This document shows positions 3,260 to 49,330 of a DNA stretch of 64,000 bases, in pieces (position 1 is the stretch's first letter; each line of letters starts with the position of its first letter). Made by a program: the position numbers and the translations under genes. The stretch is from a virus. Location of the stretch: positions 1-64,000 of IMG/VR virus record IMGVR_UViG_3300021403_000007. The stretch is one strand, 5' to 3'. Below the pieces are notes generated by a model that saw nothing but the letters and a program-made list of their open reading frames with translations, had not been told where the DNA came from and did no database searches.

Positions 3260-4192
3260 ATGCCTAATATTATACGCATACTCCGCTCCGCTGTCGCTGG
3301 CAATCGTCCTGCCGTATCGGCTGGCGAACCGTATATTAATTTTGCTGATATGCAGTTTGGGGTACACAATGTTGCACCGGTTGATTTGCTCGCCGTTCGG
3401 TTTTGGGTTAGTACTGCGACTTACGCGATCAACGATGTGGTACTTAGTGCGGGCGCTCTTTATGTCGCTATTGCGACGAATACCAATTCTCCACCTCCCA
3501 GTGTTAACTGGACACCGGTCGTTGGAGCGGCAACTGGTGTTGACAGTTTTAATGGTCGCACTGGTGCTGTTGTTCTTACGCTTGGTGACGTAACAACTGC
3601 CTTCCCTGCCGGTGTTACTCCACCGTTGATGAACAGTGCGGCAGCGGTGGGTATTGCGAATGCATGGGCACGCGAGGATCATGTTCATCCGAGTGATACG
3701 TCGCGACTAGCGTTAACTGGTGGCACGATGACAGGGCCGCTGGTTACAGCAGTGCCACCGACAGCGCTTGACGCTGTAAATAAAGCCTATGTTGACACAG
3801 CAGTTGGCAATCTTCAGTTATTCTTGGGGACATGGCAAGTTGCAACAGATACACCTTCTATTATGGGTGGTGGCGCAAATTCTGGTGATTATTATATCGC
3901 TGTTACTGCTAACCCAACTGTTCCCGAAAACGCACCCGCTGGTATTCCTGGCATTGGCGGCACCTCAGTAGGTAATGGTGACTTAGTAATATGGAATGGT
4001 ACAATATGGCAACAAGTAATTGGTTCTGGTCTTGTTAAAGCAGAAGCTGATCAGTTGTATGTTTCGTTAACTGGTAGCACTATGACTGGGCCGCTAACTC
4101 TGAACGCAACTCCTACAGCACTGAGTAACAATCTTGTGGCTGCAACTACAGCTTACGTTGATAATGCGATCATCGACGCTGGAGCTTATTAA
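3260..4192 (+). CDS. Modular tail fibre protein
   Basis: A 310-residue protein. Residues 1-80 (MPNIIRILRSA...ADMQFGV...) form an N-terminal module also found at the starts of the genes at 4193 and 8043, so it is probably the virion-anchoring domain. The middle contains a segment with AREDHVHPSDTSR, common in phage fibres. Two TMTGPL...YVD shaft repeats follow, at about residues 155-180 and 270-300. The start is preceded by the palindrome at 3239-3253, whose GGAG lies ten bases upstream of ATG. The C-terminus IIDAGAY echoes the IDAGAF end of the preceding gene. Receptor target unknown. Confidence 0.75.
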   Translation: MPNIIRILRSAVAGNRPAVSAGEPYINFADMQFGVHNVAPVDLLAVRFWVSTATYAINDVVLSAGALYVAIATNTNSPPPSVNWTPVVGAATGVDSFNGRTGAVVLTLGDVTTAFPAGVTPPLMNSAAAVGIANAWAREDHVHPSDTSRLALTGGTMTGPLVTAVPPTALDAVNKAYVDTAVGNLQLFLGTWQVATDTPSIMGGGANSGDYYIAVTANPTVPENAPAGIPGIGGTSVGNGDLVIWNGTIWQQVIGSGLVKAEADQLYVSLTGSTMTGPLTLNATPTALSNNLVAATTAYVDNAIIDAGAY

Positions 4193-5392
4193 GTGGTCAA
4201 TATTATACGAAATCTTCATAGTGCATCACCGGGTGTTCGCCCTGTTGGTAAATCATTGGGTGAGATTTACACGAACCTAGCTGACATGCAGTTAGGTGTT
4301 GTTAACAACACAAACACTGCTATTGATTTGATTGCAGTAAGATTTTTTAGTACATTGGCAAGTTATTTCACTGGGGATTGTGTTCTTTACAATGGGAAAA
4401 TTTATATCGCCAATGGTAATTTTGGACCGGGACCATTTAACTTACTTGACTGGAACGTTGTCACAATCGCAACGGACCTCAACCTTTATATGCCTCTTAC
4501 GGGGGGCACGTTCACCGGCGTTGTTATATTTCCTGCTAACAACAGTGTGGTGATTAACGGAGCAGCGGCAACCCAGCGAGCGCTTCTAGCTCAGACTGCT
4601 GGCGTTAACCGCTGGCAATTACAGTTTGCTGACTTCACCGCTGAAACCGGTGCTAACTCTGGGAGTAATTTTGTCCTTACGCCTTGCAACGATGCAGGCA
4701 ACCTTCTCCCTGCCGCTCTTAGAATTAATCGTGCTACTGGGGTTACTGACTTCGCAGTCACTCCCACTGTTGCAGGTGTGCCTATTGGTGGGGGTGGTGG
4801 TGCAACTGTTAGTGATACGGCTCCTACTAATCCATCAGAAGGAGATTTATGGTGGGATAGTGTTGGCGCACAAATGTATGTTTGGTACGTAGACCCCACT
4901 ACTTCTCAGTGGGTGCCAGTAATTAGTAGCACTGGACCTCCAGGACCAGTTGGGCCAGCAGGGCCAATAGGGCCACAAGGGCCAGTAGGTCCACAAGGAC
5001 CGTCAGGGACGCCCGGTGTTGGCACATATCTTCAAACCCAGCCTGCGACCACCGCGGGAATCAACCTTGTTTCAGGCTCCCTTGTGGACATCTTGTCGCT
5101 CAATTTGGGAACCGGCGTTTGGTTTGTCACTGCACAAATGCCGATCTATGGCACGACCACTAGCTCAGCCACTTTCCGGCTTTGGGACCACGGTGCAAAC
5201 ACCATCGGTGCGGGGATTACTTTTATCACCGCCGCTGCTGCTCGCAACTATGTAACGGTTTGCGGATTCGCCGTTAATCTGCCGACCGTCTGGATCGGGG
5301 TGCAGGCGAATAACGCGAACATGTCCATAAACCCCGGCGTATCGAATTTTGGCACAATCGATGTGCAGATGACCGCTTTTAGGATCGCATGA
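4193..5392 (+). CDS. Modular tail fibre with collagen-like segment
   Basis: A 399-residue protein that starts at GTG directly after the preceding stop. It has the shared N-terminal anchor module (residues 1-85), then a domain with the pattern DTAP[12 protein letters not shown]...YVWYVD...W (about residues 203-240). That pattern recurs twice in the gene at 61435. A short Gly-X-Y collagen-like stretch (about 247-275) and a C-terminal beta-rich domain of about 120 residues follow. The order anchor, shaft, collagen linker, head suggests a trimeric fibre whose last domain contacts the host. The stop overlaps the next ATG (ATGA). Confidence 0.75.
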
Positions 5393-8042: not shown

Positions 8043-9818
8043 ATGACATCAAGAGTTCAAACCCTTCGTTCTGCCGTACCGCTGGTGCGACCTACGGGGC
8101 GTCAACCGGGAGAGTTATACGTTAATTACCCTGATAACCAATTGGGTGTTATTAACGTTTCTGCTGCTCCAATTGATTTGATTGCAATAAGATTTTTTAG
8201 TCCTTTAACAAGTTACAATATTGGTGATTTCGTTGTTTATAGTGGAGATATATGGCACGCTCTTGCACCTTCTCCACCTGGCCCCTTTATTACTGCAAAT
8301 TGGGCAACGGTAACTGGTACTGGTGGTACAGGCGGTGGTGGAGGTGTAGGTATACCTGATGCTCCGTTTGATGGTCGATTGTATGGTCGGCAAAGTGGAG
8401 TATGGTTGGCTGTTCCAACTGATTATTTACTCTTGAGCGGCGGGACTTTATCAGGGCCGTTGGTACTCGCCGCTGATCCGACTCTTCCTCTTGGTGCTGT
8501 TACCAAACAATATGTAGACGCTAATTCTAGCACCGGTGGCCCTTTTCTTCCGTTAGCTGGTGGTACTTTAACAGGGCCACTTGCTCTTAATGCTGACCCA
8601 ACAACCAATCTTCAAGCTGCTACAAAACAATATGTAGATGCACATTCTGGCACAGGTGGAGGTGCTGGTTATCTTCCGTTAACCGGTGGCACTCTAACAG
8701 GACCGCTCACCCTTGCCGCTGATCCAACTGTTCCTCTTGGCACTGCTACAAAAGAATATGTTGATAATAGTATTACGGCAGCAATTGCTGGTATTAGTGG
8801 CGGGGTTGCGTCTAATACTAATTATGTTGTTAACGGGGATATGATACTAGATCAACGTAATAATCCTGCATCGATTACAGTTACTGGTGGATTATATTAT
8901 CCGGCTGATTTTTGGACCTCAGCCAATCTTCAATTGAGAGCAGGGACTTTACAACGAGTTACTATTACTTTGCCTACTGATCCTTTTTTTGTTGCTAGTA
9001 ACTTGTCTAATTATCTTATGTTTACGCCGACTCAACTTACATCAATACTCAGTTCTGATTATACTTATTTCCAAGTAGCACTTCCTCTTAACAGTATGGC
9101 CGCAGCTTTGGCTGGCACGCCAAATGCAAAACCGTTAACATTGTCATTTTGGGTTAGATGTGCTACTTTAACTGGGACATTTAGTGGGTCATTAGTTTTC
9201 ATTGGTGCCGGGGCACGGTCATATCCGTTCACTTATACTATTCCAACAGCTAACTTATGGACAAAGATTACAATCCCAATACCAGGCGATACGAATTCTC
9301 AAGTGTGGTCTCTTAATCATATGTCTGTTTATTTTGATATGGGTTGTGGGTCGTTGTTTCGTACGACTGCTAATGCTTGGGTTAATGGTGAATTTTTCGG
9401 TGTTACTGGATCAGCGACCCCTTGTACAACTCCTAGTAGAAGTTTTTCTGTTGGTGGGGTTAAACTAGAAATTGGTAATGTTGCAACACCTTTTATTCCT
9501 TCGAACCCTAGTGCGGTATTGGCGGCTGCACAAAAATACTATCAGAGTTATAGTAACTTGTCAGTTAGTGGTGCTGTTATGGGTATTGGTTCGAGTGGTT
9601 ATGTTATGAATAATTCATTTACATTTCCAGAAATGGCAGGCGTTCCAACAATTACTGTGTCACAGGGTAGTATTGCCAATACGAACGCAGGGATAGCATC
9701 AATAGTGTCGGGTTCAATTACACCCAATTCGTTTCAAGCACAGGCTTCTACCAATGTCGCTACGCCACCTGGAACGTGTGTTAGTAATTTTAATGCTGTT
9801 CTGTCGGTGTTAACTTAA
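8043..9818 (+). CDS. Modular tail fibre, anchor + three shaft repeats + binding domain
   Basis: A 591-residue fibre that combines modules of its neighbours. Residues 1-90 are the anchor module seen at 3260 and 4193. Residues 100-125 hold the DAP-x-DG...YGR...W module. Residues 130-245 are three successive GGTL-x-GPL...YVD repeats. From about residue 258 comes the NGDM...GVKLE-x-GN-x-ATPF domain shared with the gene at 6468. Such mosaic structure fits recombination between fibre genes within the phage. A new tail-end domain of about 100 residues probably sets specificity. Confidence 0.75.
   Translation: MTSRVQTLRSAVPLVRPTGRQPGELYVNYPDNQLGVINVSAAPIDLIAIRFFSPLTSYNIGDFVVYSGDIWHALAPSPPGPFITANWATVTGTGGTGGGGGVGIPDAPFDGRLYGRQSGVWLAVPTDYLLLSGGTLSGPLVLAADPTLPLGAVTKQYVDANSSTGGPFLPLAGGTLTGPLALNADPTTNLQAATKQYVDAHSGTGGGAGYLPLTGGTLTGPLTLAADPTVPLGTATKEYVDNSITAAIAGISGGVASNTNYVVNGDMILDQRNNPASITVTGGLYYPADFWTSANLQLRAGTLQRVTITLPTDPFFVASNLSNYLMFTPTQLTSILSSDYTYFQVALPLNSMAAALAGTPNAKPLTLSFWVRCATLTGTFSGSLVFIGAGARSYPFTYTIPTANLWTKITIPIPGDTNSQVWSLNHMSVYFDMGCGSLFRTTANAWVNGEFFGVTGSATPCTTPSRSFSVGGVKLEIGNVATPFIPSNPSAVLAAAQKYYQSYSNLSVSGAVMGIGSSGYVMNNSFTFPEMAGVPTITVSQGSIANTNAGIASIVSGSITPNSFQAQASTNVATPPGTCVSNFNAVLSVLT
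8429..8770 (+). repeat. Three tandem fibre-shaft repeats
   Basis: Three imperfect direct repeats of about 120 bases encode GGTL-x-GPL-x-L-x-ADPT...K-x-YVD, each followed by a short glycine/serine linker in the first two. They lie inside the fibre gene at 8043. The unit matches the DTMTG shaft repeats elsewhere in the window. Copy number could change by slippage or homologous recombination. Confidence 0.75.
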
Positions 9819-9833
9819 CTCTGGGAGTAAACA

Positions 9834-20229: not shown

Positions 20230-23200
20230 ATGCCATCGCTCAGTGATTATCTTGGCGATGATTATGCTCAACCGATTGGTGACACCCAACCACCGGAGCC
20301 TGTTGCACGCACACCGGAAGAACTCGCTGAAGTTCCCAGTCTTAGTGACCATGCTTCTTATCTCGCTAACGTATATCATAACTCGCTTGCAGGTTTACAT
20401 ACAGCATTAGGGTCAATAAGTGATGACCCAACTATAACCAAGCAACATGATCAACTCGCAGACCAAGAACGCTCTAAGGCGTCAGACGCTTTTGACGACA
20501 TGTCTCTCGCCGGTCGAGAAGCATCCCAAAGTTGGAATAAACACTGGATGCATGGAGCGCTGTTTGGGTTAGAGCAAATGCTACCTGGCACAGCGGCAGG
20601 AATAGCTGGTGGGCTTATAGCTGGTCCCGTTGGGGCGATGGCTGGGTTTGGGGGTATAAGCGCGTCAGACTTTGCGGGTTCAACATCGTCTGCTATTAAG
20701 CAGATGACACCGGAACAACTTGATAAACTTTCAAATTCAAAATACTCTACATTAACACAAAACGGTATGACGGACGAAGACGCCCGTAATCAAATCATTA
20801 ACGACTCTATTGGCCCCGGTATGCTCATAGCAGGTGCAGCGGGTGCAGCGACGGCAGAAGTGCCGGGGATGGGTGGCACCCTTGCAAAACGACTTGCGAT
20901 AGGCGCGGCAACGGGTGGTGCTGGTAGCGCGATAACCGATCTTGCTCTGGGAGTAACAACCGGACAAACCCCCTCTGCCGCAGATTTAGGTTCAAGCGCT
21001 TTATCAGGTGCAGTGCCAGGGATGGTGTTTGGGGCCATTGGTAAGCAACATGGACAGCGTGGACCTGATCGGGGCAAGCCTGTTGACAGTACAACTGGCA
21101 CCGGGATAGGGTCTGGTCGTATAGGTCGAGCACCTGATAAACAACTCAAAACACCGGGGAAAGGTGACGTTACTCCCGAGGGTAATACGTCAACCCCTCC
21201 TGCACCTGATATCCTAAATACTGAGCAAAGAGAAGCATTGGATGTTACTCTCGGGAGTAAACAAGAAACCAATAAAAAAGCGCCTGCTGCTCAATCTACA
21301 TCGCCAACGGGTAGTACAATACAACCGCCGGTTGCACAACCAACCCCCACCCCCTCAAAAATCGCCTCAGAGGCCCCTAGGACGGCCGATACAACCGGGC
21401 CGCTACCACCCTACCAGGAACCCCCAAAAGGGCCGCCTACGTCGCTCCCTGTTGATCCTGAGCGGCCTCCTTCTGTTCCACCCCCAACCCCCTTGACGGC
21501 GCAACCCGGTTCTGAGCCGACCCCTGCGCCCCCTGTTCGTACACCTTCTGTTCCTGTTTCACCCCAACCTACAGCGGCTATTCCTGAAAATCCGAAAACC
21601 CTTCAAATACAAGAGCAAGCGCTAGCCCAAGGAAAGAAGGAAGTTGTCTTTTATCCGCAGGGAGAGGGTTACTCTCAGAGTGGCACCAAAGCCCTTCGTG
21701 ACCAACCTAACGTTAGTGTGATCAAATGGCACAATAAAGACGTCGCTGTTTTTAGGACTGACGGTCCAAACAATCTTACATCCTCTTCCCTTCGTTCTGC
21801 CGTAAAAGAAGGTAAACTCAACGAGCTACTTGGTCTTGGCGACACGACACGCGAGGAAGCGAGCGCACGGGCTGCTACCGGTGAGACTCCTGCGGCAGTG
21901 GTCGAGCGCACTCCCGAGGGAACGGAGGCCCGTGCTGCTGCTGGGACTACGGAGACTGCGCCTGCTCAGACAGCAACGATGGAGGCAACGAAACTCGCTC
22001 CTGAAAATAAGATAAGTATCGAGCGACCGGTAGATGTTATCAAAGAAAGGCTTGCAGCGCGAGCGCCTAGAATTTTACAGGATATAAGCAAACCAAGAGA
22101 GCCTGCTGCACCTGTCTTTAAAGCAACTCAAGAAGAAGTTACTCCGGGAGTTAAGCATCGCACTATAGCTGAGAAAGCACAAATTGTAAGGAGCAATTTC
22201 ACTGCTAACAGAATAGTTTTATTAAATAAACCTATGCAACGTGAAGATTTATCAGATATTTACAAACGTGCCGGACGTATGGTTGAACAAGCTAAAGCGC
22301 GCGATATAACTATACCTAAAGAGTTAGGCACACACCACTCAGCCGGTATGGCGATTTTAAGTGAGGCACGAACACTTATTAGTAATAAAGAACCGTCACC
22401 AGATGCCTATGCGAGGTTCTTAGACCGTGAAGCACTCTTTCGTGCCGGGAAGAAAGATGAAGCACTTGGTATTCGTAAAGCTGAAGGAGCGGCAGAACTC
22501 GGCGGAACCGAGACACCTGATATCCCTGTAGAGACTACTCCTGAGAGTGAACTTATTGCGAAGCAAGAAAATGAACCACCTAAAAAATTCGAAGTCGTCA
22601 AGCTAAAACGCAGAACACCTGATAAGCTAAAAGCTCTACAAGAACAACTGGATGCACGCGCAGAAAAACCCTCTCCCACTGCCGCTATGCTTGAAGCAGG
22701 TAATTACGATAAAGGGCATATACGTCTTGAGGGAGAAAATGTAAGTATAGAGACTGGTAAGGGTGAAACGCGAGAACCCTACGACGTGAAAGTGAAAGCC
22801 CACTATGGGTACATTCGCGGCACGGTGGGGAAGGATGGCGACCACATTGATACGTATATTGGTCCCAAGGGTGAAACTGGTAAAATATTCGTGATGAACC
22901 AGCTTACTCCCGGAGTAGGTTCGTTTGACGAGCATAAAGTGTTTATGGGGTTCGATTCCAAGCGTGCAGCGTTAGACGCTTACGAGAAGTCATTTGACGA
23001 CAAGAGCGCGTGGAAGCGTGAAGGCGGAATAGTTGAGTTAAACAAAAACCAATTTAAAGACTGGCTTGACAACGGTGATCATTCACAGCCAATCAATGAA
23101 GGATTAGAGGGTGAACACCCCGGACAAAAATTTGAGACGATGGACCTTGCTGGTAAAGCACAAACTAGGGAGTATAACCACCGAAGTAATGTTAATGAGA

Positions 23201-26200
23201 TGTTAGGTATGTTAGACTTGGGCAGATGGTCCCCAAGTTTGCGTCCTCTTATACGCAACTTAGCTGATAAGTTTAAATCGCTTATTGGTGACATGCCTGT
23301 TTATTTATTGTCTAACGACGAGATGAAAAAACTAAACCCTGCAAGTGATCGCACTTTTGCTGGGGCTTACGTTACAACACACAATCATATTTATTTAAAC
23401 GATGATATTTTAAATGATCCTCGCTATAATGCGTCTCATACAATAATGCATGAAATACTTCATGCTGTTACTATTCATGCACTTAACAACGACAAAGGAC
23501 TAAGCGATCTAGCTTTGCGGTTGTACGCAGAAGTTAAAAACGAACTCGGTGACAGCATACCACAAGGTTTAGGTTATGGACTAACTAACTCTAAAGAGTT
23601 AATGACAGAGCTTTTAACTAATCCCAAATTACAAGATTGGTTAAAACATATACCTATATCACCTGAACTCGCTAAAGACCTGGGTATGCCACGATGGCGT
23701 AAGGCGACAATGTTCCAAGGGGCACTTGATTGGTTTAGAAAGTTACTAGGGTACGGTCCACGGGATTACTCTTATATCGAGGCTGCGTTGAGCATTGGCG
23801 AGAAAGCCATGTTCGCGAAAGACCCAACCAGTGAATACTCTTATAGGTTAAGGGCTTCTCAGGTATCTAATAACGAGCTAGGCGAAGGCCCGGTTCATGC
23901 AATGCTGTCTCCAGAGGCGGCAGGAGAAAAGTTCAAACAGGCTGGTAAGGATATACAAGAGGGTCTAAAGGGATTTGGTACTGGGCGTGAAGCTCCGGCT
24001 ATGCGAGCTACAAGAATTTATTTACAACAAAAACTCATGGCTCCTGATGAGTGGATGAGGCGCATCGAGAGCGCTTTCTCTCTGCCGGAAAATAATTCGT
24101 TCAGAAGATATATTAACTCTATGTCGTCCAAAGATGCTGAAGTCAAAAAAGAGCTTAAACTCTCAGATGGGGTTATGAAACATTACACCCAACTGAGTAA
24201 TGATGACCCAGAAGAATTTCAAAAACTAGAGGACGTACTATTAAGTTCTTCGCAACATGGCGTACATCCTGATGACCCATTAGGCGTGGGCCGTAATAAA
24301 CATATTAAAGTGAACAAAACAAACCCTGAAAACTCTAACCAAGAATACAAAGACGCCATACATAACCACGCTGACGATGCTCTTAAATACAGCGCGTTAA
24401 CTCCTGAGAGTAAAGAACTGTTTGGTGATGTCCGTGATGAAATGTCGCGTGAACACAAGGTAGCTCTTGACGAGGGACGCAAAGCTATAACAAACTCAAT
24501 AGAGAAAGAACTACGCACGGGTGACTACCAAGCAGACTACAAAACCGCGGTGCAGAAAGTTATTGACAAAGAAGAACTCGATCACGACGAACAAAAACTT
24601 GTAGAGGGAGACAAGAATGTTGCCCAAATTCGTAACTATGATCGAACCTCTAGACAGGCACTCAAAGGACCGTACTTCCCAACGCGGCAAGAGGGAACTC
24701 ACGTTGTTGAGGGTGAACACGACTATAAAATACCCGATGGAGCTAGTCGTGATCCCGATAATCCGAACAAAATAATCTTTAAAACTCGCAAAGAAGCATG
24801 GGACTTTACTCCCAAGACTAAAGATGGTGACGCGCTTGCTACTGATATGAGCAAGAAATATTACTGGCCCCAGCAAGACGGGTCCAAAAAATACACTTCG
24901 AGCGAAGACGTGCGGGCTACACCTGACTGGCGTGGCAAGACAACCCCGGAAGAAGAGTATCATGTTGACGTGAACAATAAACACTATGAGTTTGCTGACA
25001 GTGTACGCGAGGGCGAGAAATACCGTAAAGCCATGCAGGATGCTGGTGTCACAAATGTTTCTCAGGTTCTGCCGCGTAAAGAGAATGTCACGTACGGTCC
25101 TAACGCGCTGAATGTTAAATCGATGCTCGATCATGTCGATAAAATGGCGCAACTATCAGGAAGTGAAAAAGAAGCAAGCAAAGACGCAATCAGGTATGCA
25201 GCGATAGCAGGGCAACGTGGTAACTCTATTAATAAAAACTATCTTAGACGGTATGGTGCTCAGTCTAATCTTGATAGCGTGCGTACTCTTGATATGCGCC
25301 GCCGTGCTAATGCTAGCTTTGTGGCTATGGCTCGACATAGGCCAGACATTGATGAAGCTCTTGAACACATGCAGAAATTTGCTGACGATAATAAGCAACA
25401 CGACGATGCGGGAGAATTACAAGCAGGAGTGAATATTTTTAAAAACCGTGCAGACAATTATCAAAACGATACTATGAACAACATGAAGACTTCTAAGTTT
25501 TGGAATAGCGTATCTACGTTTGCTACTTTAAAATACTTGTTAAGCCCTGCGTTCTTGTTGCGCCACCAAATACATGTGCCTTTGTTCGTGCTTCCCAAGT
25601 TGGCTCAACATATTGGCTGGTGGCCAGCTTTGCGGCAGACGATGAGAATATATAAAGACATGGCAGGGGGATGGCCAGTTATTACTCGCGGAGTAAAGTC
25701 AGGTCTTAAGACTATTTGGGACTATGATAAAGATCCTACCGACTTTATTGACGCTCTTAAACAAGAACGTATGAAGCGTGGTGGGTCTGCTGAAGAAATG
25801 AAGATGATTGATCAATTGTCACAGTGGGATTTGTTACACCATACAGGCATTGACTTTGAGAACGCTTACAGGAGCCAAGGTGCCCTTGGTAAATTCCAAC
25901 GTGGCGCTCGTAACATGGCACAAGAGATCATTGGCAGCGCCGACGGTGTGTCAAGGTTTAACTCTAGTCTGATGTTCTATCGCGCCGCTCGCGATACACT
26001 TGGTATGGACCACGACAAAGCTACACAGTTTACGGCTGACCGTATCAGGGAAACCCAAGGGCAGTTCTCCAGCTTTAATCGTTTAGAGGTTATGCGTAAC
26101 CCCGCCGTTCGTGCCGCTATGCAATTTAAGAGTTTCCCGTTGTTGGTACTTAAAACTATCACCAAGGCAATGTATAACTCTTTAAGGTATGGTGCATCTG

Positions 26201-27033
26201 CTGAAGAACGCTGGCAAGGAGTTAAAACATTAGGTGGTATCACCGCTGCTTCTATGGCGATATCAGGGGTATCAGGTGCGATGCCAGAGCCTATAGAAGA
26301 CCTGATTGACGTAACAGGGTTACTTGGGCTCACCGACAACTGGCCTCAACTCGAAGACAAACTTCGTACCTCGGCGGCAGAGCAAATGTCGCCGGAGGGT
26401 GCTAACATTCTTATGAATGGTCTGGGTGGAGCTTTGGGGATTGATCTGCATCATGTGGGCGGTATTAGCGATATGACGGGGCTGCCTTATATACTCTCAA
26501 GTCGTAAACCTACAGACGACATGTATAAGTGGCTAGCAGGAGTGCCAGGAAGTATAATGGGGGACGGCTTCACGGGGATGGGTGATTTGCAGGGTGGCAA
26601 CATAGAGAACGCTTTACAAATTATGTTGCCCAAGCTAATCACCGATCCAATCAAAGCCTACCAAGAATATACTACGGGAGTAACTACTCAAGCGGGCAAA
26701 ACAATATCGGCTCCAGTGAGTGCCCCTGAAGCACTGTTACGCGCGCTTGGGTTCGTAACCACCACTGAGTCATCGGCGCGACAAGCACGCTATATCACTG
26801 GTGTTGAGCAGGGTGCGCGTCAGGACGCCTCTAAGCAAATCACCCAAATGTGGCAGAGTGGTGACAAGGTGGGTGCGATACAGGCGATGCGGGCATACAA
26901 CGCTCAACATCCTGATCAGCCTATCCGTCCACCCTCTACCAAGCCTGCACGTCCAACGGTGTTAGGGTATCCCGAGACCCCACGTAATCAAGCTGAACTC
27001 GAAGCGAGAGCAAGAGCCTATGGCCTCCAGTAA
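20230..27033 (+). CDS. Giant polyvalent-type internal virion protein
   Basis: A 2267-residue protein, the largest in the window. Residues about 110-280 hold glycine/alanine-rich hydrophobic stretches that may insert in membranes. Residues 330-460 are proline-rich linkers. Residues about 815-950 match the inorganic-pyrophosphatase-like domain of phage polyvalent proteins: KVKAHYGYIRGTVGKDGDHIDTY, then FDEHKVFMGFDS. Residues about 1060-1130 contain a zincin metallopeptidase signature, HEILHAV, with a downstream glutamate region (ELMTELLTN). The remaining 1000 residues are mostly charged helices, with another hydrophobic part near 2000-2040. Polyvalent proteins are injected with phage DNA and act on host defences or envelope; this role is inferred. 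Confidence 0.75.
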   Translation: MPSLSDYLGDDYAQPIGDTQPPEPVARTPEELAEVPSLSDHASYLANVYHNSLAGLHTALGSISDDPTITKQHDQLADQERSKASDAFDDMSLAGREASQSWNKHWMHGALFGLEQMLPGTAAGIAGGLIAGPVGAMAGFGGISASDFAGSTSSAIKQMTPEQLDKLSNSKYSTLTQNGMTDEDARNQIINDSIGPGMLIAGAAGAATAEVPGMGGTLAKRLAIGAATGGAGSAITDLALGVTTGQTPSAADLGSSALSGAVPGMVFGAIGKQHGQRGPDRGKPVDSTTGTGIGSGRIGRAPDKQLKTPGKGDVTPEGNTSTPPAPDILNTEQREALDVTLGSKQETNKKAPAAQSTSPTGSTIQPPVAQPTPTPSKIASEAPRTADTTGPLPPYQEPPKGPPTSLPVDPERPPSVPPPTPLTAQPGSEPTPAPPVRTPSVPVSPQPTAAIPENPKTLQIQEQALAQGKKEVVFYPQGEGYSQSGTKALRDQPNVSVIKWHNKDVAVFRTDGPNNLTSSSLRSAVKEGKLNELLGLGDTTREEASARAATGETPAAVVERTPEGTEARAAAGTTETAPAQTATMEATKLAPENKISIERPVDVIKERLAARAPRILQDISKPREPAAPVFKATQEEVTPGVKHRTIAEKAQIVRSNFTANRIVLLNKPMQREDLSDIYKRAGRMVEQAKARDITIPKELGTHHSAGMAILSEARTLISNKEPSPDAYARFLDREALFRAGKKDEALGIRKAEGAAELGGTETPDIPVETTPESELIAKQENEPPKKFEVVKLKRRTPDKLKALQEQLDARAEKPSPTAAMLEAGNYDKGHIRLEGENVSIETGKGETREPYDVKVKAHYGYIRGTVGKDGDHIDTYIGPKGETGKIFVMNQLTPGVGSFDEHKVFMGFDSKRAALDAYEKSFDDKSAWKREGGIVELNKNQFKDWLDNGDHSQPINEGLEGEHPGQKFETMDLAGKAQTREYNHRSNVNEMLGMLDLGRWSPSLRPLIRNLADKFKSLIGDMPVYLLSNDEMKKLNPASDRTFAGAYVTTHNHIYLNDDILNDPRYNASHTIMHEILHAVTIHALNNDKGLSDLALRLYAEVKNELGDSIPQGLGYGLTNSKELMTELLTNPKLQDWLKHIPISPELAKDLGMPRWRKATMFQGALDWFRKLLGYGPRDYSYIEAALSIGEKAMFAKDPTSEYSYRLRASQVSNNELGEGPVHAMLSPEAAGEKFKQAGKDIQEGLKGFGTGREAPAMRATRIYLQQKLMAPDEWMRRIESAFSLPENNSFRRYINSMSSKDAEVKKELKLSDGVMKHYTQLSNDDPEEFQKLEDVLLSSSQHGVHPDDPLGVGRNKHIKVNKTNPENSNQEYKDAIHNHADDALKYSALTPESKELFGDVRDEMSREHKVALDEGRKAITNSIEKELRTGDYQADYKTAVQKVIDKEELDHDEQKLVEGDKNVAQIRNYDRTSRQALKGPYFPTRQEGTHVVEGEHDYKIPDGASRDPDNPNKIIFKTRKEAWDFTPKTKDGDALATDMSKKYYWPQQDGSKKYTSSEDVRATPDWRGKTTPEEEYHVDVNNKHYEFADSVREGEKYRKAMQDAGVTNVSQVLPRKENVTYGPNALNVKSMLDHVDKMAQLSGSEKEASKDAIRYAAIAGQRGNSINKNYLRRYGAQSNLDSVRTLDMRRRANASFVAMARHRPDIDEALEHMQKFADDNKQHDDAGELQAGVNIFKNRADNYQNDTMNNMKTSKFWNSVSTFATLKYLLSPAFLLRHQIHVPLFVLPKLAQHIGWWPALRQTMRIYKDMAGGWPVITRGVKSGLKTIWDYDKDPTDFIDALKQERMKRGGSAEEMKMIDQLSQWDLLHHTGIDFENAYRSQGALGKFQRGARNMAQEIIGSADGVSRFNSSLMFYRAARDTLGMDHDKATQFTADRIRETQGQFSSFNRLEVMRNPAVRAAMQFKSFPLLVLKTITKAMYNSLRYGASAEERWQGVKTLGGITAASMAISGVSGAMPEPIEDLIDVTGLLGLTDNWPQLEDKLRTSAAEQMSPEGANILMNGLGGALGIDLHHVGGISDMTGLPYILSSRKPTDDMYKWLAGVPGSIMGDGFTGMGDLQGGNIENALQIMLPKLITDPIKAYQEYTTGVTTQAGKTISAPVSAPEALLRALGFVTTTESSARQARYITGVEQGARQDASKQITQMWQSGDKVGAIQAMRAYNAQHPDQPIRPPSTKPARPTVLGYPETPRNQAELEARARAYGLQ
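21245..21260. repeat. Perfect-arm palindrome copy, 4-base centre, inside a gene
   Basis: TTACTC-TCGG-GAGTAA lies within the giant internal protein gene. Both 6-base arms match the consensus exactly. Confidence 0.85.
25682..25696. repeat. Perfect-arm palindrome copy inside a gene
   Basis: TTACTC-GCG-GAGTAA lies within the giant internal protein gene, read as (I)TRGVK. Both arms are exact, far from any gene boundary. Confidence 0.85.
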
Positions 27034-39239: not shown

Positions 39240-39268
39240 AGTATATACTACAACCTGACTCGTGTCAA
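39240..39268 (-). promoter_or_regulatory. Main promoter 1 (leftward, recombination/replication block)
   Basis: On the minus strand there is TTGACA (39263-39268), a 17-base spacer containing GTCAGGTTGTA, and TATACT (39240-39245). Upstream lies AAATACAAC-N5-GTTGC, an inverted repeat touching the -35. A palindrome variant with a two-base centre (39224-39237) covers the expected start of transcription. The same arrangement recurs at 45204 and 49302. Confidence 0.88.
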
Positions 39269-39273
39269 GCAAC

Positions 39274-41175
39274 TCAGAGTTGTATTTCCTTCACATTACC
39301 ATAGTTTTGTCCGACCTTCACTTCAGCGTCAAGTGGCAAACCACGTCCCCACCAAGCCGGTGTACGCATTTCTTGGTGAGCGATTTCTGCTACCGTAGTA
39401 ACTAGACCATCTGGCACAACGTATATTAGCTCGTCGTGGACTTGGTGCGCAAGTCGTATGTCGTTGATCATTATCGCTTTTAATCTGTCGTCGATCCGCT
39501 TGGCTGCGTCCATCACATGACAACGATCTAACGCCTGTACGTGGTTCTCAAGAAACTTCCCACCGTATATCTCACGTATCTCCCGAGCATATGTGAACAC
39601 CTTCCTGCCGCCAAAGTCACGAATGTTATCGTAGTAAAGTCTTAGCCCATTCGGCAACACCACGTCTGTGCCTTCAATGCGTGACGGTCCTAAGCGGCAG
39701 ACGAAGGGCCCGCCAACACCACCATGGGTTATGGGCATCATCTCTGTCAGTACTCGCTCTAACACGTACCAGTATTTAACGATACTGCGGAACTTATTAC
39801 GATAGAACTGCACCCACAATTGACAGTCAGCAAATGAAACGTCTATCGGTATACCGTTATCTGCTGCTTGGTTCACCAATTGTGTGAGAAACTTGTTCGG
39901 TCCCATCTGGAAGCCTAGACCCAATACAGTGTTCTTGGCAATAAACCGTTCAAGCTTGTCCGCTTTCGTGATGGTACGCCTGAACATGTCACTGCCAAAC
40001 CAACAATAAACATCGCTACCTTTGGCAAACTCTGAGAGTAATTGTCTTTCGTCAGCTAACCATGCAACTAATCTAGCTTCTATTTGGGACGCATCTACAG
40101 CTACAATCTTATACCCTGGTGGGGCTATCAAGCTCTCACGAAGTTTCTTTGACTTGCGAGAAGGTAGATTTTGCTGGTTGATCTTCCACTCACCGCTGAA
40201 CCTGTGCGTATGTGCCCCACCATACCTGAGAGCAATGGGCATCCATGGTTCGTCAAACCCATTCACTGCCGCTTCGGCCATGCCAATAAACCGTTGAGTA
40301 CGTCGTTCTTCCAACGTAGACCGTATCCCTATACGCGCTTCTGCGAGTGCTTGCACATCTGGGTTCTCATGCTCCTGTAACGCACGAAACCCTTCATCAG
40401 TCTTAGCAAATGCGAAGATGCGTTTAGATGGATCGGTTAGAGAGTTCTTCATGGGCGGGTCTACGCCTAGCCCCCATAGGGCTACCGCAAACATCTTGCT
40501 TGAAAGTAAATCAGCACGGGTCAAACCAACTCTTTCGAGTAAACTGTTTTTCTCTTGCAAGATAATGTTCAAGTGTTCATGCAAATGTGTTAAGTCTGCC
40601 TGAAAGTTTGGGGCAGTACACATTCTAAGTATCGCGTCCATCACCCATAGCTCACCCTTGGGGAACTTTTTGCCGAGACGCCTAATAATACTTCGACAAT
40701 TCTCTGTATCGGTAATACAGTATTGTTTGAATTCTTCCCAGAGTTCTGGTTGTGCTTCTAGGTCTTTACGTCGCATCCCAATAACTTTATGAACAGTCGC
40801 GCCTTTTGGCGGCAGACCAAGGACTTGCGATACGTTTTCAAGGTTTACACGACCGTTTTTGATTTTGTGTAACAAAACTGCTCGGGCTATACCCATTGCG
40901 TCTATTAGCATGTCAGGGTGTATGCCATACCTAAACGCCAATATACTTGCATCAAACAAAGCGTTATACGAAACAAACGCCCATGGTCGTGGATACTCTC
41001 GGAGTAAGTCTGCCACTTCGTCACCCGGCAGGAATGTGGCCGGTCCTTCGTTTGTGGCAATACCACAGCCAATTGTCTCCCAACGCGGGTCGAGAATATA
41101 CTCATATGGCGTCATGAGTTTAAGCGTATAGTATTTGTCATAATACGACTCAAAGTCGCCATAGATCATTTTCAT
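39274..41175 (-). CDS. Family A DNA polymerase
   Basis: A 633-residue replicative polymerase. The N-terminal 180 residues have a 3'-5' exonuclease (YGDFESY, SYNALFDASIL, CITDTENC). There is no 5' nuclease. Polymerase motif A is DASQIEAR (361-368). Motif B contains R410, K414 and then LGLGFQMG, so the residue equivalent to E. coli Pol I Phe762 is Leu418 and that of Tyr766 is Phe422. Motif C is HDEL (580-583). It copies phage DNA. Leucine at the 762 position has been linked to slower, more accurate synthesis and to temperate life cycles in viral surveys. It starts after AAGAGTAACACA. Confidence 0.92.
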   Translation of the reverse strand: MKMIYGDFESYYDKYYTLKLMTPYEYILDPRWETIGCGIATNEGPATFLPGDEVADLLREYPRPWAFVSYNALFDASILAFRYGIHPDMLIDAMGIARAVLLHKIKNGRVNLENVSQVLGLPPKGATVHKVIGMRRKDLEAQPELWEEFKQYCITDTENCRSIIRRLGKKFPKGELWVMDAILRMCTAPNFQADLTHLHEHLNIILQEKNSLLERVGLTRADLLSSKMFAVALWGLGVDPPMKNSLTDPSKRIFAFAKTDEGFRALQEHENPDVQALAEARIGIRSTLEERRTQRFIGMAEAAVNGFDEPWMPIALRYGGAHTHRFSGEWKINQQNLPSRKSKKLRESLIAPPGYKIVAVDASQIEARLVAWLADERQLLSEFAKGSDVYCWFGSDMFRRTITKADKLERFIAKNTVLGLGFQMGPNKFLTQLVNQAADNGIPIDVSFADCQLWVQFYRNKFRSIVKYWYVLERVLTEMMPITHGGVGGPFVCRLGPSRIEGTDVVLPNGLRLYYDNIRDFGGRKVFTYAREIREIYGGKFLENHVQALDRCHVMDAAKRIDDRLKAIMINDIRLAHQVHDELIYVVPDGLVTTVAEIAHQEMRTPAWWGRGLPLDAEVKVGQNYGNVKEIQL

Positions 41176-41185
41176 TGTGTTACTC

Positions 41186-42148
41186 TTATTGTGTTATTGG
41201 CGTTATTATATCTTGCCATATGTCGTCCCATGGGTTGTTAGTTTGGTGCCATTGCGCGTGCAAAGTTTGGCCCGTGATAGTTGCCTTCAACCTACGTTGG
41301 GCTTTCTCTCTTTGATATGCGTGATAGAACTCGTTGAAGTGATCTGTTAATCCATCTTCAAGTAATTCGTTGGTTAGTACAGGGACGATTGTAACACTGT
41401 CATCAGGTACAGGTGGTTTAGGTTTGTCTTTTATTATACGATAGAAAGCAATTAGTTCTGTGCCATACCCACAGATACCTTTGAACCATTTTGATACACC
41501 TGGAACATAGCGTGGGGGTTTTGCTTCAACGTATTCTTTTAACGCCCTGAATACTAATGGATCATTTGAGTCGCTATAAAGTGATGGCACGATGGCGCGT
41601 AACCATGAGAGCATGTGAACAGTCAATGGAACTGGAATACCATTCCTAAGAAACATACTAAACAATTCAAGAGTTGTTGACCACTGTATAGCAATGTCAA
41701 CTAGTGGGACTAACTTCTTCCCAAGTTTACTCTCGATAGTAATATTGTTTATGTACCTTGGCCACAACCAATAAGTATGAGTTTGGTCAACAGTAGATTT
41801 ATAGTTTAAGGAATACTCAACTCGCTGATTAAGAAACCCAGTAAATATATGAAGATTATCAGTTGACCAATTAGAAACTCTCGGCATCAACAATGATGCA
41901 TCAGTCATTGTCTGGTAGTCACCTGGGGGTATCAAGTCGTAATACAACTCCTGTTGGGCCATTGGCGTTGATAACGTGTACAACGTATCAATCGCTATTT
42001 CGCGGAGCTTATTTTTAATAAGATCGTGCGCTTTCACTTGCGCGACCGTTGGAATTTTAGTTCTTCTATGTGGTAATTCTTCCATCTTGCTCTCCAATGG
42101 TGGGGCGTCTGGGTCATCCCAGTTACACCCCGGCGGATCATAACCCAT
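41186..42148 (-). CDS. Hypothetical protein of the MoxR/VWA operon
   Basis: A 320-residue protein of unknown function. Two starts are plausible: ATG 42148 after AGGAGTAATA, and the in-frame ATG 42085 after TGGAGAGCAAG, the more typical ribosome site of this block, giving 299 residues. It is a mixed, tryptophan- and tyrosine-rich soluble protein without membrane segments. Eleven bases separate it from the VWA-metallopeptidase gene, and ten from the polymerase, so it is part of that operon. Confidence 0.55.
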   Translation of the reverse strand: MGYDPPGCNWDDPDAPPLESKMEELPHRRTKIPTVAQVKAHDLIKNKLREIAIDTLYTLSTPMAQQELYYDLIPPGDYQTMTDASLLMPRVSNWSTDNLHIFTGFLNQRVEYSLNYKSTVDQTHTYWLWPRYINNITIESKLGKKLVPLVDIAIQWSTTLELFSMFLRNGIPVPLTVHMLSWLRAIVPSLYSDSNDPLVFRALKEYVEAKPPRYVPGVSKWFKGICGYGTELIAFYRIIKDKPKPPVPDDSVTIVPVLTNELLEDGLTDHFNEFYHAYQREKAQRRLKATITGQTLHAQWHQTNNPWDDIWQDIITPITQ

Positions 42149-42159
42149 TATTACTCCTA

Positions 42160-43470
42160 TTATGTTTGGTCGAGTTGTTTCGGGAGTAACACCTTGTCAC
42201 CGAACGGGATGTCATGGTTCTTAATCGTACACCAGATGACTGGGTAGGGTGGCGGCAGGAGGGGAAATGCACCCTCTAAGTCTGTGAGGTATACCAAGAC
42301 CTCTGGCTCAAGTCCCTCTTGCGCTACCCGCTCAAACACCGGACAGAAGTCAGTCCCACCTCCACCTTTGATTTTACGCATCATGTCATCGGGTGTATCA
42401 AGCTCAACATACTCATTCACTGCCGCATCACATTGCATGAACACCAATGTACGTGGACGCGCTTGCTCCATGAGTCCTACACCCTCAGTGCAGAACATGT
42501 CCATAGTTTTCTGGTTGATACTCCCAGAGTTATCCACCACGAACACGATTGTCTCGCAGCCATACTTTACTTTCGATGGTGAGCCTATGCCTCTAAGCAT
42601 CAACTCATTGTCGAGTGTAGACCATGTACTAAAGTCAGCGCCCATCCGTCGTGACATGGTGACTGTCAAGTGTTCACGCCAGTCAACTTGTGGCTCCAAT
42701 AACTTAGAGAGCCCACGCTCTAGCGCCGCTGGCAATCGGCCTTGCGCCTTCGCACTGGCAAGAGCGGCAGTGAGGGCGTTGTCCCAGGCTTGCGGGTTAC
42801 GTGCCTCTCGCGCTTGTGCTGGCGTCTTACCCGTGCCCTTACCAGGTGTTAAGTGCTCGTCGAAGCTCTTATCACCACCACCGTTGCCAGATGGCTTGGG
42901 CTGACCCTTACTCCCAGAGTTAGGTTTATTTTGTTTGTATAGTTTCCTGTACGCGGTGGTCAAATCATCTTGGTAGGTTATTAGTTGGGGCTCATGCCAA
43001 CAGTCCTTTGGCGCTTCCCCCACCTTGCCGCGCTTCAACATGTCATTGATAAGACAGTCAGCGGCGACTTGCATGACTTCGCTAACATAAGGGAGTTTCA
43101 TGCCATCAGGGTACAGGATGTATCCGAGTTGTGCGAACCGATACATCATGCCACAATGATTGAATATACCATGACAGATTTCATGGCAAGCAATAAACAC
43201 CCGCTGTTGTAACGTATGCTTGAAATATTCTGTTGGATTAATAAACATGAACTGATCATTAGTGGCGGCAATAGGAATTTCGTCTGTGAACCATGCCAAC
43301 TCACGATCTTTATCCTGCATCATGCGGAACCATACATCGGCAAAGGCGGGCTGGTTCACCAATAGCGCTGTACGCGTCTCCATCCATAGTTTTGCCTGTT
43401 GTGGCGTTATGGGTAACTTGGGCCACTTCTCACAGCTAGTCTCGACCTTGAACGCGCCAATCTCGCCCAT
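42160..43470 (-). CDS. VWA-domain protein with HExxH metallopeptidase-like region (DUF2201-like)
   Basis: A 436-residue protein. Residues 88-105 include ACHEICHGIFNHC, a zinc-binding HExxH helix with a third histidine. Residues 175-225 are a disordered Gly/Lys/Pro linker. Residues 305-420 are a von Willebrand A domain with the MIDAS motif DNSGS (313-317), GGGGTDFCPVF and VYLTDLEG. This pairing of a peptidase-like region with VWA occurs in DUF2201-family proteins that work with MoxR AAA+ ATPases, and such an ATPase lies two genes upstream. It is probably an adaptor of a chaperone-like machine; the target is unknown. Confidence 0.8.
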   Translation of the reverse strand: MGEIGAFKVETSCEKWPKLPITPQQAKLWMETRTALLVNQPAFADVWFRMMQDKDRELAWFTDEIPIAATNDQFMFINPTEYFKHTLQQRVFIACHEICHGIFNHCGMMYRFAQLGYILYPDGMKLPYVSEVMQVAADCLINDMLKRGKVGEAPKDCWHEPQLITYQDDLTTAYRKLYKQNKPNSGSKGQPKPSGNGGGDKSFDEHLTPGKGTGKTPAQAREARNPQAWDNALTAALASAKAQGRLPAALERGLSKLLEPQVDWREHLTVTMSRRMGADFSTWSTLDNELMLRGIGSPSKVKYGCETIVFVVDNSGSINQKTMDMFCTEGVGLMEQARPRTLVFMQCDAAVNEYVELDTPDDMMRKIKGGGGTDFCPVFERVAQEGLEPEVLVYLTDLEGAFPLLPPPYPVIWCTIKNHDIPFGDKVLLPKQLDQT

Positions 43471-43471
43471 G

Positions 43472-43672
43472 TTACTCTCCCCGTTCTAAGCGGACCAATT
43501 TTAGTGCTTTTGGTTGGGTTTCGACAATGCCGGATAATACGTGTTTCCATAATCCGGCGCGACGATAGGGTTTCCAATGAGCTTGCCAGAGATAACCTCT
43601 CTCTTTTTCGCGTTTAGCTAGAACCAGGTCGTCAATTTCGCGAGCCCGAATAATTTTTGGTGTCTTTGCCAT
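43472..43672 (-). CDS. Small basic protein between MoxR and VWA genes
   Basis: A 66-residue basic protein (many K and R) beginning MAKTPKIIRAREIDDL. Its ATG overlaps the stop of the preceding gene, and two bases separate its stop from the next gene. It contains aromatic residues near the middle (YLWQAHWKPYRRAGLW). No known family; operon position suggests a part of the MoxR-VWA system. Confidence 0.55.
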   Translation of the reverse strand: MAKTPKIIRAREIDDLVLAKREKERGYLWQAHWKPYRRAGLWKHVLSGIVETQPKALKLVRLERGE

Positions 43673-43920
43673 TAGCCCTCACTCCCATCACTCTCAGAGT
43701 AATACGTGTCAACGCGTTGGTCGAACAAAGTTAAATTCGTAGTACCAACATTGTCATCGACAATTGACGCCGTGATAGTTGGTGATCGCTCCGCTAGCAT
43801 AGCGAGTTGTGCGTATAAGTCTGTCGCACTGCTGCGTAGCACCTCTGTGTATACCCCGCGCATAGCAGGGTCATGTGTAGGTATGTCGGCTCTGACATGG
43901 ATGGTAAAGTGTACACGCAT
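43672..43920 (-). CDS. Small hypothetical protein of the MoxR/VWA operon
   Basis: An 82-residue protein starting MRVHFTIHVRADIPTH after GAAGGAGAGCAACC, the strongest ribosome site here. The frame is open further up to ATG 44034, just after the MoxR stop, so a 120-residue form with a helical N-terminus is possible. It is alpha/beta in appearance, with a beta strand pair at the start. Function unknown. It carries a palindrome copy near its 3' end (43688-43702). Confidence 0.55.
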   Translation of the reverse strand: MRVHFTIHVRADIPTHDPAMRGVYTEVLRSSATDLYAQLAMLAERSPTITASIVDDNVGTTNLTLFDQRVDTYYSESDGSEG

Positions 43921-44035
43921 GGTTGCTCTCCTTCCTTCTTCCTTGGCTCGGTCTTGCTCCAGCCTCCGCCACACTTCTTTGGCTATGTGCTTGAGTAAAG
44001 CCTCTAGCTCTGGACCATTCCCTTGCATATACATT

Positions 44036-45166
44036 CTATGCAGCTTCTCTCTTGTGGTCTCGATCATATCCTTCCACAATTGCGATGAGATTGGCATTCG
44101 CTTTTGTCCATGCTTTGAACTCGGGCATAACCAACACGCCCACGTTACGGTCCCGTATCATCTTCACCATCATGAACTGGAACTCGTTCGGCAGACGGGA
44201 CATGAGTGTCGCCAGCGCTGCCGCATCATGGGGCTTGGCCCAGTCAGCCAGCTTGTATCCCAGCAAGCGCAAACGATCTGGCTCCAATGGGATGGACACT
44301 GTTCCGGGATTGGCGATACATTCTTCGTAGGATGGAAGCTCTTGCGCCATGCGGAAGTGCATGAACAGTTGCTCGGCGTTCTCCTTGCCAATCCCACCAG
44401 CAATGAGTGATTGTGTTCCCACGTCGAGTGGTATCTTACTCAGAGAGTAAAGAAACATTCTGGCTTTCAAGTAGGTGTTCGCTTGTGCCAGTGACCTAGG
44501 AGTGCAGTATGGTCCTTGGATTGCTGGTGCCTCCTGAAACAATATATGCGGGAACGTTTCGCCAAACGCAATAATCTCTGGCAATACTTTGTGTGTACGT
44601 GCCCAGTCAACCCACGCTTCACTGCTGTCTCTGACTGTGACCAATATCTGCGAGTTGATAATAAAGTCAAACGTTTTCGTGCCACCATTGCGTGAACCCA
44701 AAGGATTGCCAGCACTCCACACGACCCAGCCGGGCGGCAACCAATGCGTGCCAACTCGCTTGAGTAGCTTCATATCGCGTGTGAGCTTGCGCTCCTCGGG
44801 GTTCATCTTATCTTCTTCGTCGATAAAGATAATACCCCCAGAGTAAGAGTCAATCGGTCGGCCTTCACGCGTGATCCACCAATACGGCAGAGAGAAGTGA
44901 CTGACTTTCTTTTGGAGAGTGCCGTCAACATTCATCTCCATAAACCCACATAGCCACGGCAGAGTGACGGTTAGTCCGTTGATATACACGAACCCATAGT
45001 CACCATCGGGATCAATCGTCTTAAGGATTGCAGGCGACTGGTTCATTATAGTCGTCTTGCCGCGACCGGCAGGAGACTCAAGGTGAATTGAGGGGCCATC
45101 GGGCTGGCTGGAAGCCAAGTACCATTCAGGGATGCGCTCGGCGATTTCGTTCAGTGTCAGTGCCAT
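44036..45166 (-). CDS. MoxR-type AAA+ ATPase
   Basis: A 376-residue AAA+ protein after AAAGGAGAGCAAACC. Walker A is ESPAGRGKTT (30-39), Walker B GGIIFIDEEDK (110-120) and sensor 1 WVVWSAGNP. The helical lid lies in the C-terminal third (around residues 235-340). MoxR ATPases remodel or activate partner complexes together with VWA proteins, and the VWA protein lies downstream in the same operon. It is the first gene after the promoter at 45204. A perfect palindrome copy lies inside (44436-44450). Confidence 0.85.
   Translation of the reverse strand: MALTLNEIAERIPEWYLASSQPDGPSIHLESPAGRGKTTIMNQSPAILKTIDPDGDYGFVYINGLTVTLPWLCGFMEMNVDGTLQKKVSHFSLPYWWITREGRPIDSYSGGIIFIDEEDKMNPEERKLTRDMKLLKRVGTHWLPPGWVVWSAGNPLGSRNGGTKTFDFIINSQILVTVRDSSEAWVDWARTHKVLPEIIAFGETFPHILFQEAPAIQGPYCTPRSLAQANTYLKARMFLYSLSKIPLDVGTQSLIAGGIGKENAEQLFMHFRMAQELPSYEECIANPGTVSIPLEPDRLRLLGYKLADWAKPHDAAALATLMSRLPNEFQFMMVKMIRDRNVGVLVMPEFKAWTKANANLIAIVEGYDRDHKREAA
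44436..44450. repeat. Perfect-arm palindrome copy inside the MoxR gene
   Basis: TTACTC-AGA-GAGTAA with both arms exact, in the middle of the coding region. Confidence 0.85.
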
Positions 45167-45189: not shown

Positions 45190-45204
45190 TTACTATAAGA
45201 GTAA
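45190..45204. promoter_or_regulatory. Palindrome copy at the start of transcription of promoter 2
   Basis: TTACTA-TAA-GAGTAA shares its last base with the -10 box at 45204-45209, so it covers the expected transcription start. A bound protein here would block initiation. Confidence 0.8.
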
Positions 45205-45232
45205 GTATACACTACAACCTGACTGCTGTCAA
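45204..45232 (-). promoter_or_regulatory. Main promoter 2 (leftward, MoxR/VWA block)
   Basis: On the minus strand there is TTGACA (45227-45232), a 17-base spacer with GTCAGGTTGTA, and TATACT (45204-45209). An upstream CAACC-N4-GGTTG inverted repeat touches the -35. It is nearly identical to the promoters at 39240 and 49302 and drives the MoxR gene 38 bases downstream. Confidence 0.9.
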
Positions 45233-45519: not shown

Positions 45520-45545
45520 GTTTTACTCCCATAGTAAAAGAGAAT

Positions 45546-45658: not shown

Positions 45659-45874
45659 TTATTTTACTCCCGTAGTAAGTGTGCAAGTTATCGTTGTACC
45701 ATTGTTGGTCGGTGTACACGTCTGACCACTTACGGGGTGAGATACAAGCCCATCCCACATGTTAGCGCACGTTGTGGGCGGCAGGGAGAGTTTGCATACA
45801 CGTATGTACGCGTCATGGTGATACACTGTACACGCGCAAAAAGCGAGCGCAAAAAAATGATAGTTGCGTGTCAT
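45659..45874 (-). CDS. Small cysteine-containing, probably exported protein
   Basis: A 71-residue protein starting MTRNYHFFALAFCACTVY at an ATG that overlaps the upstream stop, with GGAG nine bases before. The hydrophobic N-terminus may be a signal peptide, with cysteines at 13 and 15 that do not form a clear lipobox. The rest has four more cysteines and a threonine-rich end. No family is known to me. Confidence 0.5.
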   Translation of the reverse strand: MTRNYHFFALAFCACTVYHHDAYIRVCKLSLPPTTCANMWDGLVSHPVSGQTCTPTNNGTTITCTLTTGVK

Positions 45875-49301: not shown

Positions 49302-49330
49302 TTGACAGGGGTCAGGTTGTATGCTATACT
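49302..49330 (+). promoter_or_regulatory. Main promoter 3 (rightward, packaging/structural block)
   Basis: TTGACA (49302-49307), a 17-base spacer containing GTCAGGTTGTA, and TATACT (49325-49330). ATACAACC-TGT-GGTTG forms an inverted repeat just before the -35. It drives the terminase gene at 49411; the palindrome copy at 49387-49401 lies downstream at the ribosome site. Near-identical to promoters 1 and 2. Confidence 0.9.

What the first reader, a model, noticed from the sequence alone, without database searches (positions are those of the whole stretch)
42160..45166. Phage operon with MoxR AAA+ ATPase and HExxH-VWA protein
The genes at 44036 (MoxR) and 42160 (HExxH plus VWA MIDAS) are separated by two small genes of unknown function and followed by a third hypothetical gene (41186), all behind a main promoter. 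MoxR-VWA pairs are chaperone-like modules in bacteria, and such modules also occur in conflict systems. In a phage this set may remodel a host complex, mature the particle, or counter a defence. The two or three small partner genes appear new.
Basis: partly seen in the sequence, partly recalled or inferred. Interest (0 to 1): 0.72.

Follow-up and report, generated by a model that had tools for sequence, protein, structure and literature searches.

The report
Phage midasin-like ATPase–metalloprotease replication cassette
A soil phage carries, at the head of its DNA-replication operon, an ATP-driven ring protein and a partner that is probably a metal-dependent protease; the pair is already known from other phages, but here it comes with a small third protein that related phages either share or swap for a different one.

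Summary
A minus-strand operon behind a strong sigma-70-like promoter encodes an AAA+ ATPase (44036-45166), a small protein, a variable small gene, a zincin+VWA protein (42160-43470) and an unknown protein (41186-42148), followed by DNA polymerase A. The ATPase/metallopeptidase-VWA pair is not new: it is N4 gp24/gp25 and the pair reported in group 2.2 jumbo phages. Catalytic and MIDAS residues are almost invariant in 94 relatives, and the ATPase lies upstream in 58 of 58 testable phage loci. What appears new: (1) the small gene 43672 belongs to a widespread family found only between ATPase and VWA in 32 phage loci; 39 other loci carry a DUF3150-like protein instead, and none carries both; cellular versions are mostly two abutting genes. 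(2) The cassette heads a conserved replication operon, which argues against a virion-assembly or accessory counter-defence role. (3) PHROG/RefSeq label the metallopeptidase-VWA protein 'HNH endonuclease', apparently wrongly. Of the other 'new partner genes', 43472 is a variable slot and 41186 is lineage-specific. Best mechanism, inferred: a midasin-like ring driving a MIDAS-docked metalloprotease on a replication-stage target, with the third protein as adaptor.

The parts
45204..45232 (-). promoter TTGACAGCAGTCAGGTTGTAGTGTATACT, about 38 nt before the ATPase start
   Evidence: 11 of 12 consensus; 3 copies with shared spacer in the window against 0.03 expected
44036..45166 (-). AAA+ ATPase of the midasin/MoxR-like clade, N4 gp24-like (376 aa)
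   Evidence: phrog_1297 1.9e-44; midasin best solved relative 6e-32; Walker A/B, sensor 1 and PR motif conserved
43672..44034 (-). small third component 'sm' (core 82 aa from 43920; possible 38-aa N-terminal extension from 44034)
   Evidence: family found only between ATPase and VWA in 32 phage loci; homologous to EVB41_054 of Rhizobium phage RHph_TM3_14A (E 2.8e-5; hhalign 6.7e-5)
43472..43672 (-). variable small gene (66 aa), not part of the conserved cassette
   Evidence: absent in L005 and replaced by unrelated ORFs in L006, L007 and L008
42160..43470 (-). metallopeptidase (HExxHxxxxH) + VWA/MIDAS protein, N4 gp25-like (436 aa)
   Evidence: Pfam DUF2201_N and DUF2201; residues conserved in 94 relatives; model pLDDT 88.9 with a VWA fold, Z up to 12.4
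41186..42148 (-). lineage-specific protein of unknown function (320 aa)
   Evidence: found only in the window's sub-lineage and L030; no hit in the phage records; no relation to EVB41_056
39274..41175 (-). DNA polymerase A, next replication gene downstream (context)
   Evidence: Pfam DNA_pol_A 6.5e-25; PolA lies downstream of the VWA gene in 53 of 64 testable loci

Best explanation
The cassette encodes an ATP-driven, midasin-like protein-remodelling protease used at the middle/replication stage of infection. The ATPase forms a ring (inferred from the AAA+ family). The 42160 protein docks on the ring through its VWA domain and uses the MIDAS metal site to hold an acidic residue of a target (inferred from NorQ/NorD and midasin). 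ATP-driven motion pulls the target so that the attached HExxH zincin domain can cut or release it (inferred from retained catalytic residues). The small 'sm' protein made between the two is a third subunit or adaptor that gives target choice; a DUF3150-like protein fills the same place in related phages (shown: position and mutual exclusivity; inferred: function). The target is most likely a host or phage protein on replicating DNA, because the cassette heads the PolA/nuclease/helicase operon (location shown, target inferred).
For: Active-site residues: HExxH in 91 of 93 and MIDAS D-S-S-T-D in 94 of 94 relatives down to about 22% identity, N4 and Bacillus phage G included. ATPase upstream on the same strand in 58 of 58 testable loci. 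sm in 32 loci, always between ATPase and VWA, and in no other ORF among 17,428 in the searched loci; DUF3150-like in 39 loci; both in none. Cellular homologues: ATPase upstream in 74 of 80, mostly abutting, never sm. Operon order ATPase-[sm or DUF3150-like]-VWA-PolA-exonuclease-VRR-SNF2. ATPase best matches midasin; the VWA model matches MDN1/Rea1-MIDAS among its top folds. In NorQ/NorD the MIDAS is thought to bind the target and is needed for activity (PMC9976466). N4 gp24/gp25 are middle genes (PMC4193335).
Against: No experiment bears on proteolysis, ring formation, interaction or target. sm could be a substrate or regulator rather than an adaptor, or just a linked gene. The sm/DUF3150 exclusivity is partly phylogenetic: the parsimony count is only two switches, and the second rests on branches with support 86-88 and a long branch. 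Outside this phage group the pair is not always beside replication genes (Cyanophage S-TIM66 has it near structural genes and Hsp20), and two divergent relatives (L104, L107) have no HExxH.
Confidence: 0.45

Rival explanations
1. Virion assembly chaperone-protease: the pair helps fold and cut structural proteins, as proposed for group 2.2 jumbo phages and as reported (without the peptidase) for the tail of the archaeal virus ATV.
For: Published proposal for the same domain combination (PMC7824862); in Cyanophage S-TIM66 the pair lies near structural genes and Hsp20.
Against: In the window and in most relatives the cassette heads the replication operon, in the window on the strand opposite to the structural genes; N4 gp24/gp25 are middle genes.
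Confidence: 0.22
2. Host takeover or counter-defence: the machine remodels or destroys a host complex or defence protein, with sm/DUF3150 as the variable specificity part.
For: Exchangeable third component and variable neighbouring slot 43472; related AAA+/VWA modules occur in conflict systems (PMC7159879).
Against: No match to any PADLOC defence model; the pair is a core, syntenic feature of the replication operon rather than a patchy accessory; active sites are under strong constraint.
Confidence: 0.2
3. Pure chaperone or cofactor-insertion pair (RavA/ViaA- or NorQ/NorD-like) in which the zincin domain is structural and does not cut.
For: Known MoxR-VWA pairs act without proteolysis (PMC9976466); two relatives lack HExxH.
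Against: HExxH in 91 of 93, with H105 and D138 also conserved across very distant phages, suggests a working metal site.
Confidence: 0.13

Closest known systems
N4-like (Schitoviridae) gp24 AAA+ ATPase / gp25 pair
   Same: Same two families, same order, middle genes, listed in the panproteome of N4-like viruses (PMC7650795, PMC4193335); gp25 matches DUF2201_N at 3e-87 and DUF2201 at 1.4e-46
   Different: No third gene between them in N4; about 22% identity for the VWA protein and 16% for the ATPase
MoxR AAA+ / metallopeptidase-vWA pair of group 2.2 jumbo phages (PMC7824862)
   Same: Same domain combination and gene pairing
   Different: Proposed there for virion assembly; here it heads the replication operon with sm or a DUF3150-like third gene
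Midasin (Rea1/MDN1)
   Same: AAA+ domain is the best solved sequence relative (6e-32); MIDAS domain among the top fold matches of the VWA model
   Different: Midasin is one giant chain with six AAA domains and no metallopeptidase (general knowledge); here the parts are separate genes
NorQ/NorD, RavA/ViaA, CbbQ/CbbO pairs
   Same: AAA+ ATPase with a VWA partner bearing MIDAS
   Different: Partners lack the N-terminal zincin; RavA is a weak sequence relative (E 5e-9) and ViaA barely scores (E 0.0019)
Cellular DUF2201 operons (Chromatiales, Thiobacillus and others)
   Same: ATPase upstream of the zincin-VWA protein in 74 of 80 loci
   Different: Mostly two abutting genes; sm never found, DUF3150-like in only 7 loci, possibly phage contigs

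Membership tests
Phage AAA+/metallopeptidase-VWA pair (N4 gp24/gp25 type; phrog_1297 + phrog_1314) | ATPase of phrog_1297 | tested here: met
   1.9e-44
Phage AAA+/metallopeptidase-VWA pair (N4 gp24/gp25 type; phrog_1297 + phrog_1314) | DUF2201_N zincin with HExxH | tested here: met
   Pfam 2.6e-14; HExxH in 91 of 93 relatives
Phage AAA+/metallopeptidase-VWA pair (N4 gp24/gp25 type; phrog_1297 + phrog_1314) | VWA with full MIDAS DxSxS-T-D | tested here: met
   94 of 94 relatives; Pfam DUF2201 1e-22
Phage AAA+/metallopeptidase-VWA pair (N4 gp24/gp25 type; phrog_1297 + phrog_1314) | ATPase gene upstream of VWA gene | tested here: met
   58 of 58 phage loci with enough upstream sequence
MoxR family (strict) | closer to MoxR/RavA than to other AAA+ clades | tested here: inconclusive
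   RavA 5.1e-9 and McrB 7e-9 tie; midasin best in PDB; no Pfam hit for the window ATPase itself
MoxR family (strict) | hexameric ring with helix-2 insert | not testable with these tools
   No complex modelling or oligomer assay available
HNH endonuclease (PHROG/RefSeq label) | HNH nuclease domain | tested here: not met
   Pfam scans of the window protein and N4 gp25 list no HNH family; the strong matches are DUF2201_N and DUF2201
Anti-phage defence system components | match to a PADLOC model | tested here: not met
   0 hits for all five proteins at E 0.01
Schitoviridae (N4-like phage) | giant virion RNA polymerase and N4-type virion genes | tested here: inconclusive
   PHROG scans of the main window genes gave T7-type internal virion, portal-like and capsid families and no RNA polymerase hit; not every ORF was scanned

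The most novel reading that the evidence does not exclude
A three-component, midasin-like AAA+/MIDAS metalloprotease dedicated to phage DNA replication, whose target choice is set by an exchangeable third subunit (sm or DUF3150-like), for example to strip or cut host proteins or crosslinked proteins from replicating DNA.
Probability: 0.25. Interest if true: 0.75.

Novelty: new variant of a known kind. Interest (0 to 1): 0.45.

Why it matters
The pair occurs in hundreds of phage records (320-342 by sequence alone), is listed in the N4-like panproteome, and has no experimentally shown function in the papers I could search. The conserved third component, its exchange for a DUF3150-like protein and the fixed place at the head of the replication operon give a concrete, testable hypothesis. 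Correcting the 'HNH endonuclease' label would stop a wrong function from spreading through automatic annotation. Cultured Rhizobium phages (RHph_TM3_14A, TM27A, TM27B, TM29) carry the whole cassette.

Tried and rejected
Fusion of sm to the VWA protein in Rhizobium phage RHph_I1_6 (tblastn E 0.6): the match falls inside the VWA domain and the sm profile scores below zero there; rejected. Homology of 41186 to EVB41_056 at the same place: hhalign probability 0.1; rejected. Fold of sm: pLDDT 82, one confident viral match (73 aa, same length as the Rhizobium homologue, identity not checked); PDB matches only Z 4.0 or less, so no fold assigned. Solved relatives of sm: none. Literature on DUF3150: no paper in the held library. 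RNA elements and tRNAs: none. Genome draw by taxonomy is not available for a virus record.

Full report
CHECK. They lie on the minus strand behind TTGACA-17-TATACT at 45204-45232. Two further copies of this promoter with a shared spacer lie at 39240 and 49302, against 0.03 expected in the window. The ATPase matches phrog_1297. The 42160 protein is DUF2201_N (putative metallopeptidase) plus DUF2201 (VWA). The window is part of a 64,494-base virus record. Main virion genes are T7-like by PHROG; no RNA polymerase was found among the ORFs scanned. The small gene 43672 is listed too long: its homologues begin near 43920, and 44034 is an alternative start right after the ATPase stop.

THE PAIR IS KNOWN. 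tblastn finds the VWA protein in 342 and the ATPase in 320 phage records. N4 gp24/gp25 are the same pair and are listed in the N4-like panproteome (PMC7650795). They are middle genes in N4 (PMC4193335). Jumbo-phage authors described a MoxR plus metallopeptidase-vWA pair and suggested virion assembly (PMC7824862). PHROG 1314 and several RefSeq records call the VWA protein 'HNH endonuclease'. Neither the window protein nor N4 gp25 gave any HNH match in Pfam, and N4 gp25 matches DUF2201_N at 3e-87, so this label looks wrong.

CONSERVATION. I fetched 80 phage loci with a VWA profile, analysed them together with earlier ones, and built HMMs for each component over 17,428 ORFs. HExxH is kept in 91 of 93 aligned sequences and the MIDAS residues in 94 of 94. 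The histidine H105 and D138 are also nearly invariant. Two divergent relatives, L104 and L107, have no HExxH; a third sequence without it, L009, is a fragment. In all 58 loci with at least 3.5 kb upstream the ATPase is upstream on the same strand. Loci were chosen by their VWA gene, so this does not measure ATPases that lack a VWA partner.

A THIRD COMPONENT. A family of about 75 residues ('sm', to which 43672 belongs) occurs in 32 loci, always between ATPase and VWA, and nowhere else among the ORFs searched. L007 and L054 carry two copies. Rhizobium phage RHph_TM3_14A has it as EVB41_054. Clustering of the ORFs in the gap gave a second large family, DUF3150-like, about 290 aa, in 39 loci, mostly between the two genes and sometimes beside them. 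The DUF3150 link rests on the GenBank name in MinM2 and a sub-threshold Pfam match (E 0.054). No locus has both families. On a VWA tree the sm loci form one large group with DUF3150-like loci around it and two (L052, L066) placed inside it; parsimony gives two switches, the second weakly supported. Cellular homologues usually have the ATPase directly abutting the VWA gene (74 of 80 with the ATPase upstream) and never sm.

PLACE IN THE GENOME. Downstream of the VWA gene PolA is found in 53 of 64 loci with at least 5 kb of sequence, usually followed by a RecB-like nuclease, VRR-NUC and SNF2 helicase. In the window these lie on the strand opposite to the virion genes. That argues for middle/replication timing rather than late virion assembly, and for a core rather than an accessory counter-defence role; PADLOC gave no match.

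HOW IT MOST LIKELY WORKS. The ATPase's best solved relative is midasin (6e-32). RavA and McrB tie in a direct control, so strict MoxR membership is inconclusive. The VWA model (pLDDT 88.9) has a clear VWA fold (Z up to 12.4) with MDN1/Rea1 MIDAS domains among the Foldseek matches. In NorQ/NorD the MIDAS is proposed to grip the target and is required for activity (PMC9976466). By analogy, the ring drives a MIDAS-held target against the zincin domain, with sm or the DUF3150-like protein as adaptor. Shown: gene presence, order, motif conservation, third-component exclusivity. Inferred: ring, docking, proteolysis, adaptor role, replication target. sm itself models as a long helix followed by a hairpin (pLDDT 82) without a convincing PDB match.

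VERDICT. Observation confirmed; interpretation partly supported. A known pair in a new variant, with a newly recognised conserved third component and a replication-operon context.

Noticed in passing
window, 38 sites, e.g. 45521-45535, 45662-45676, 9818-9832: Dispersed semi-palindromic motif ACTCYGGGAGTAA on both strands, inside and between genes: 29 exact GGGAGTAA against 1.7 expected, 38 near matches of the longer form against 1 expected; also frequent in L004, L007, L009 and L055 but absent in L031, L032 and L040.
   Followed up: partly
39240-39268 (-), 45204-45232 (-), 49302-49330 (+): Three promoters with identical hexamers and a conserved spacer (GTCAGGTTGTA), upstream of 38910, the ATPase and terL.
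   Followed up: partly
phrog_1314 / RefSeq records such as NC_008720 gp25, NC_023719 gp576: Zincin-VWA proteins labelled 'HNH endonuclease' although Pfam shows DUF2201_N and DUF2201 and no HNH match in N4 gp25.
   Followed up: yes
L104:5465-6910, L107:7341-8636: Relatives of the VWA protein without HExxH but with an intact MIDAS.
   Followed up: no
20230-27033 (+): A 2267-aa protein with partial matches to DarB-like antirestriction, endolysin and minor head PHROG families, following a 1548-aa protein with a transglycosylase match.
   Followed up: no
L007:3765-3992 and 3997-4434; L054:4520-4828 and 4884-5144: Two adjacent sm-family genes in the same gap, suggesting duplication of the third component.
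   Followed up: no
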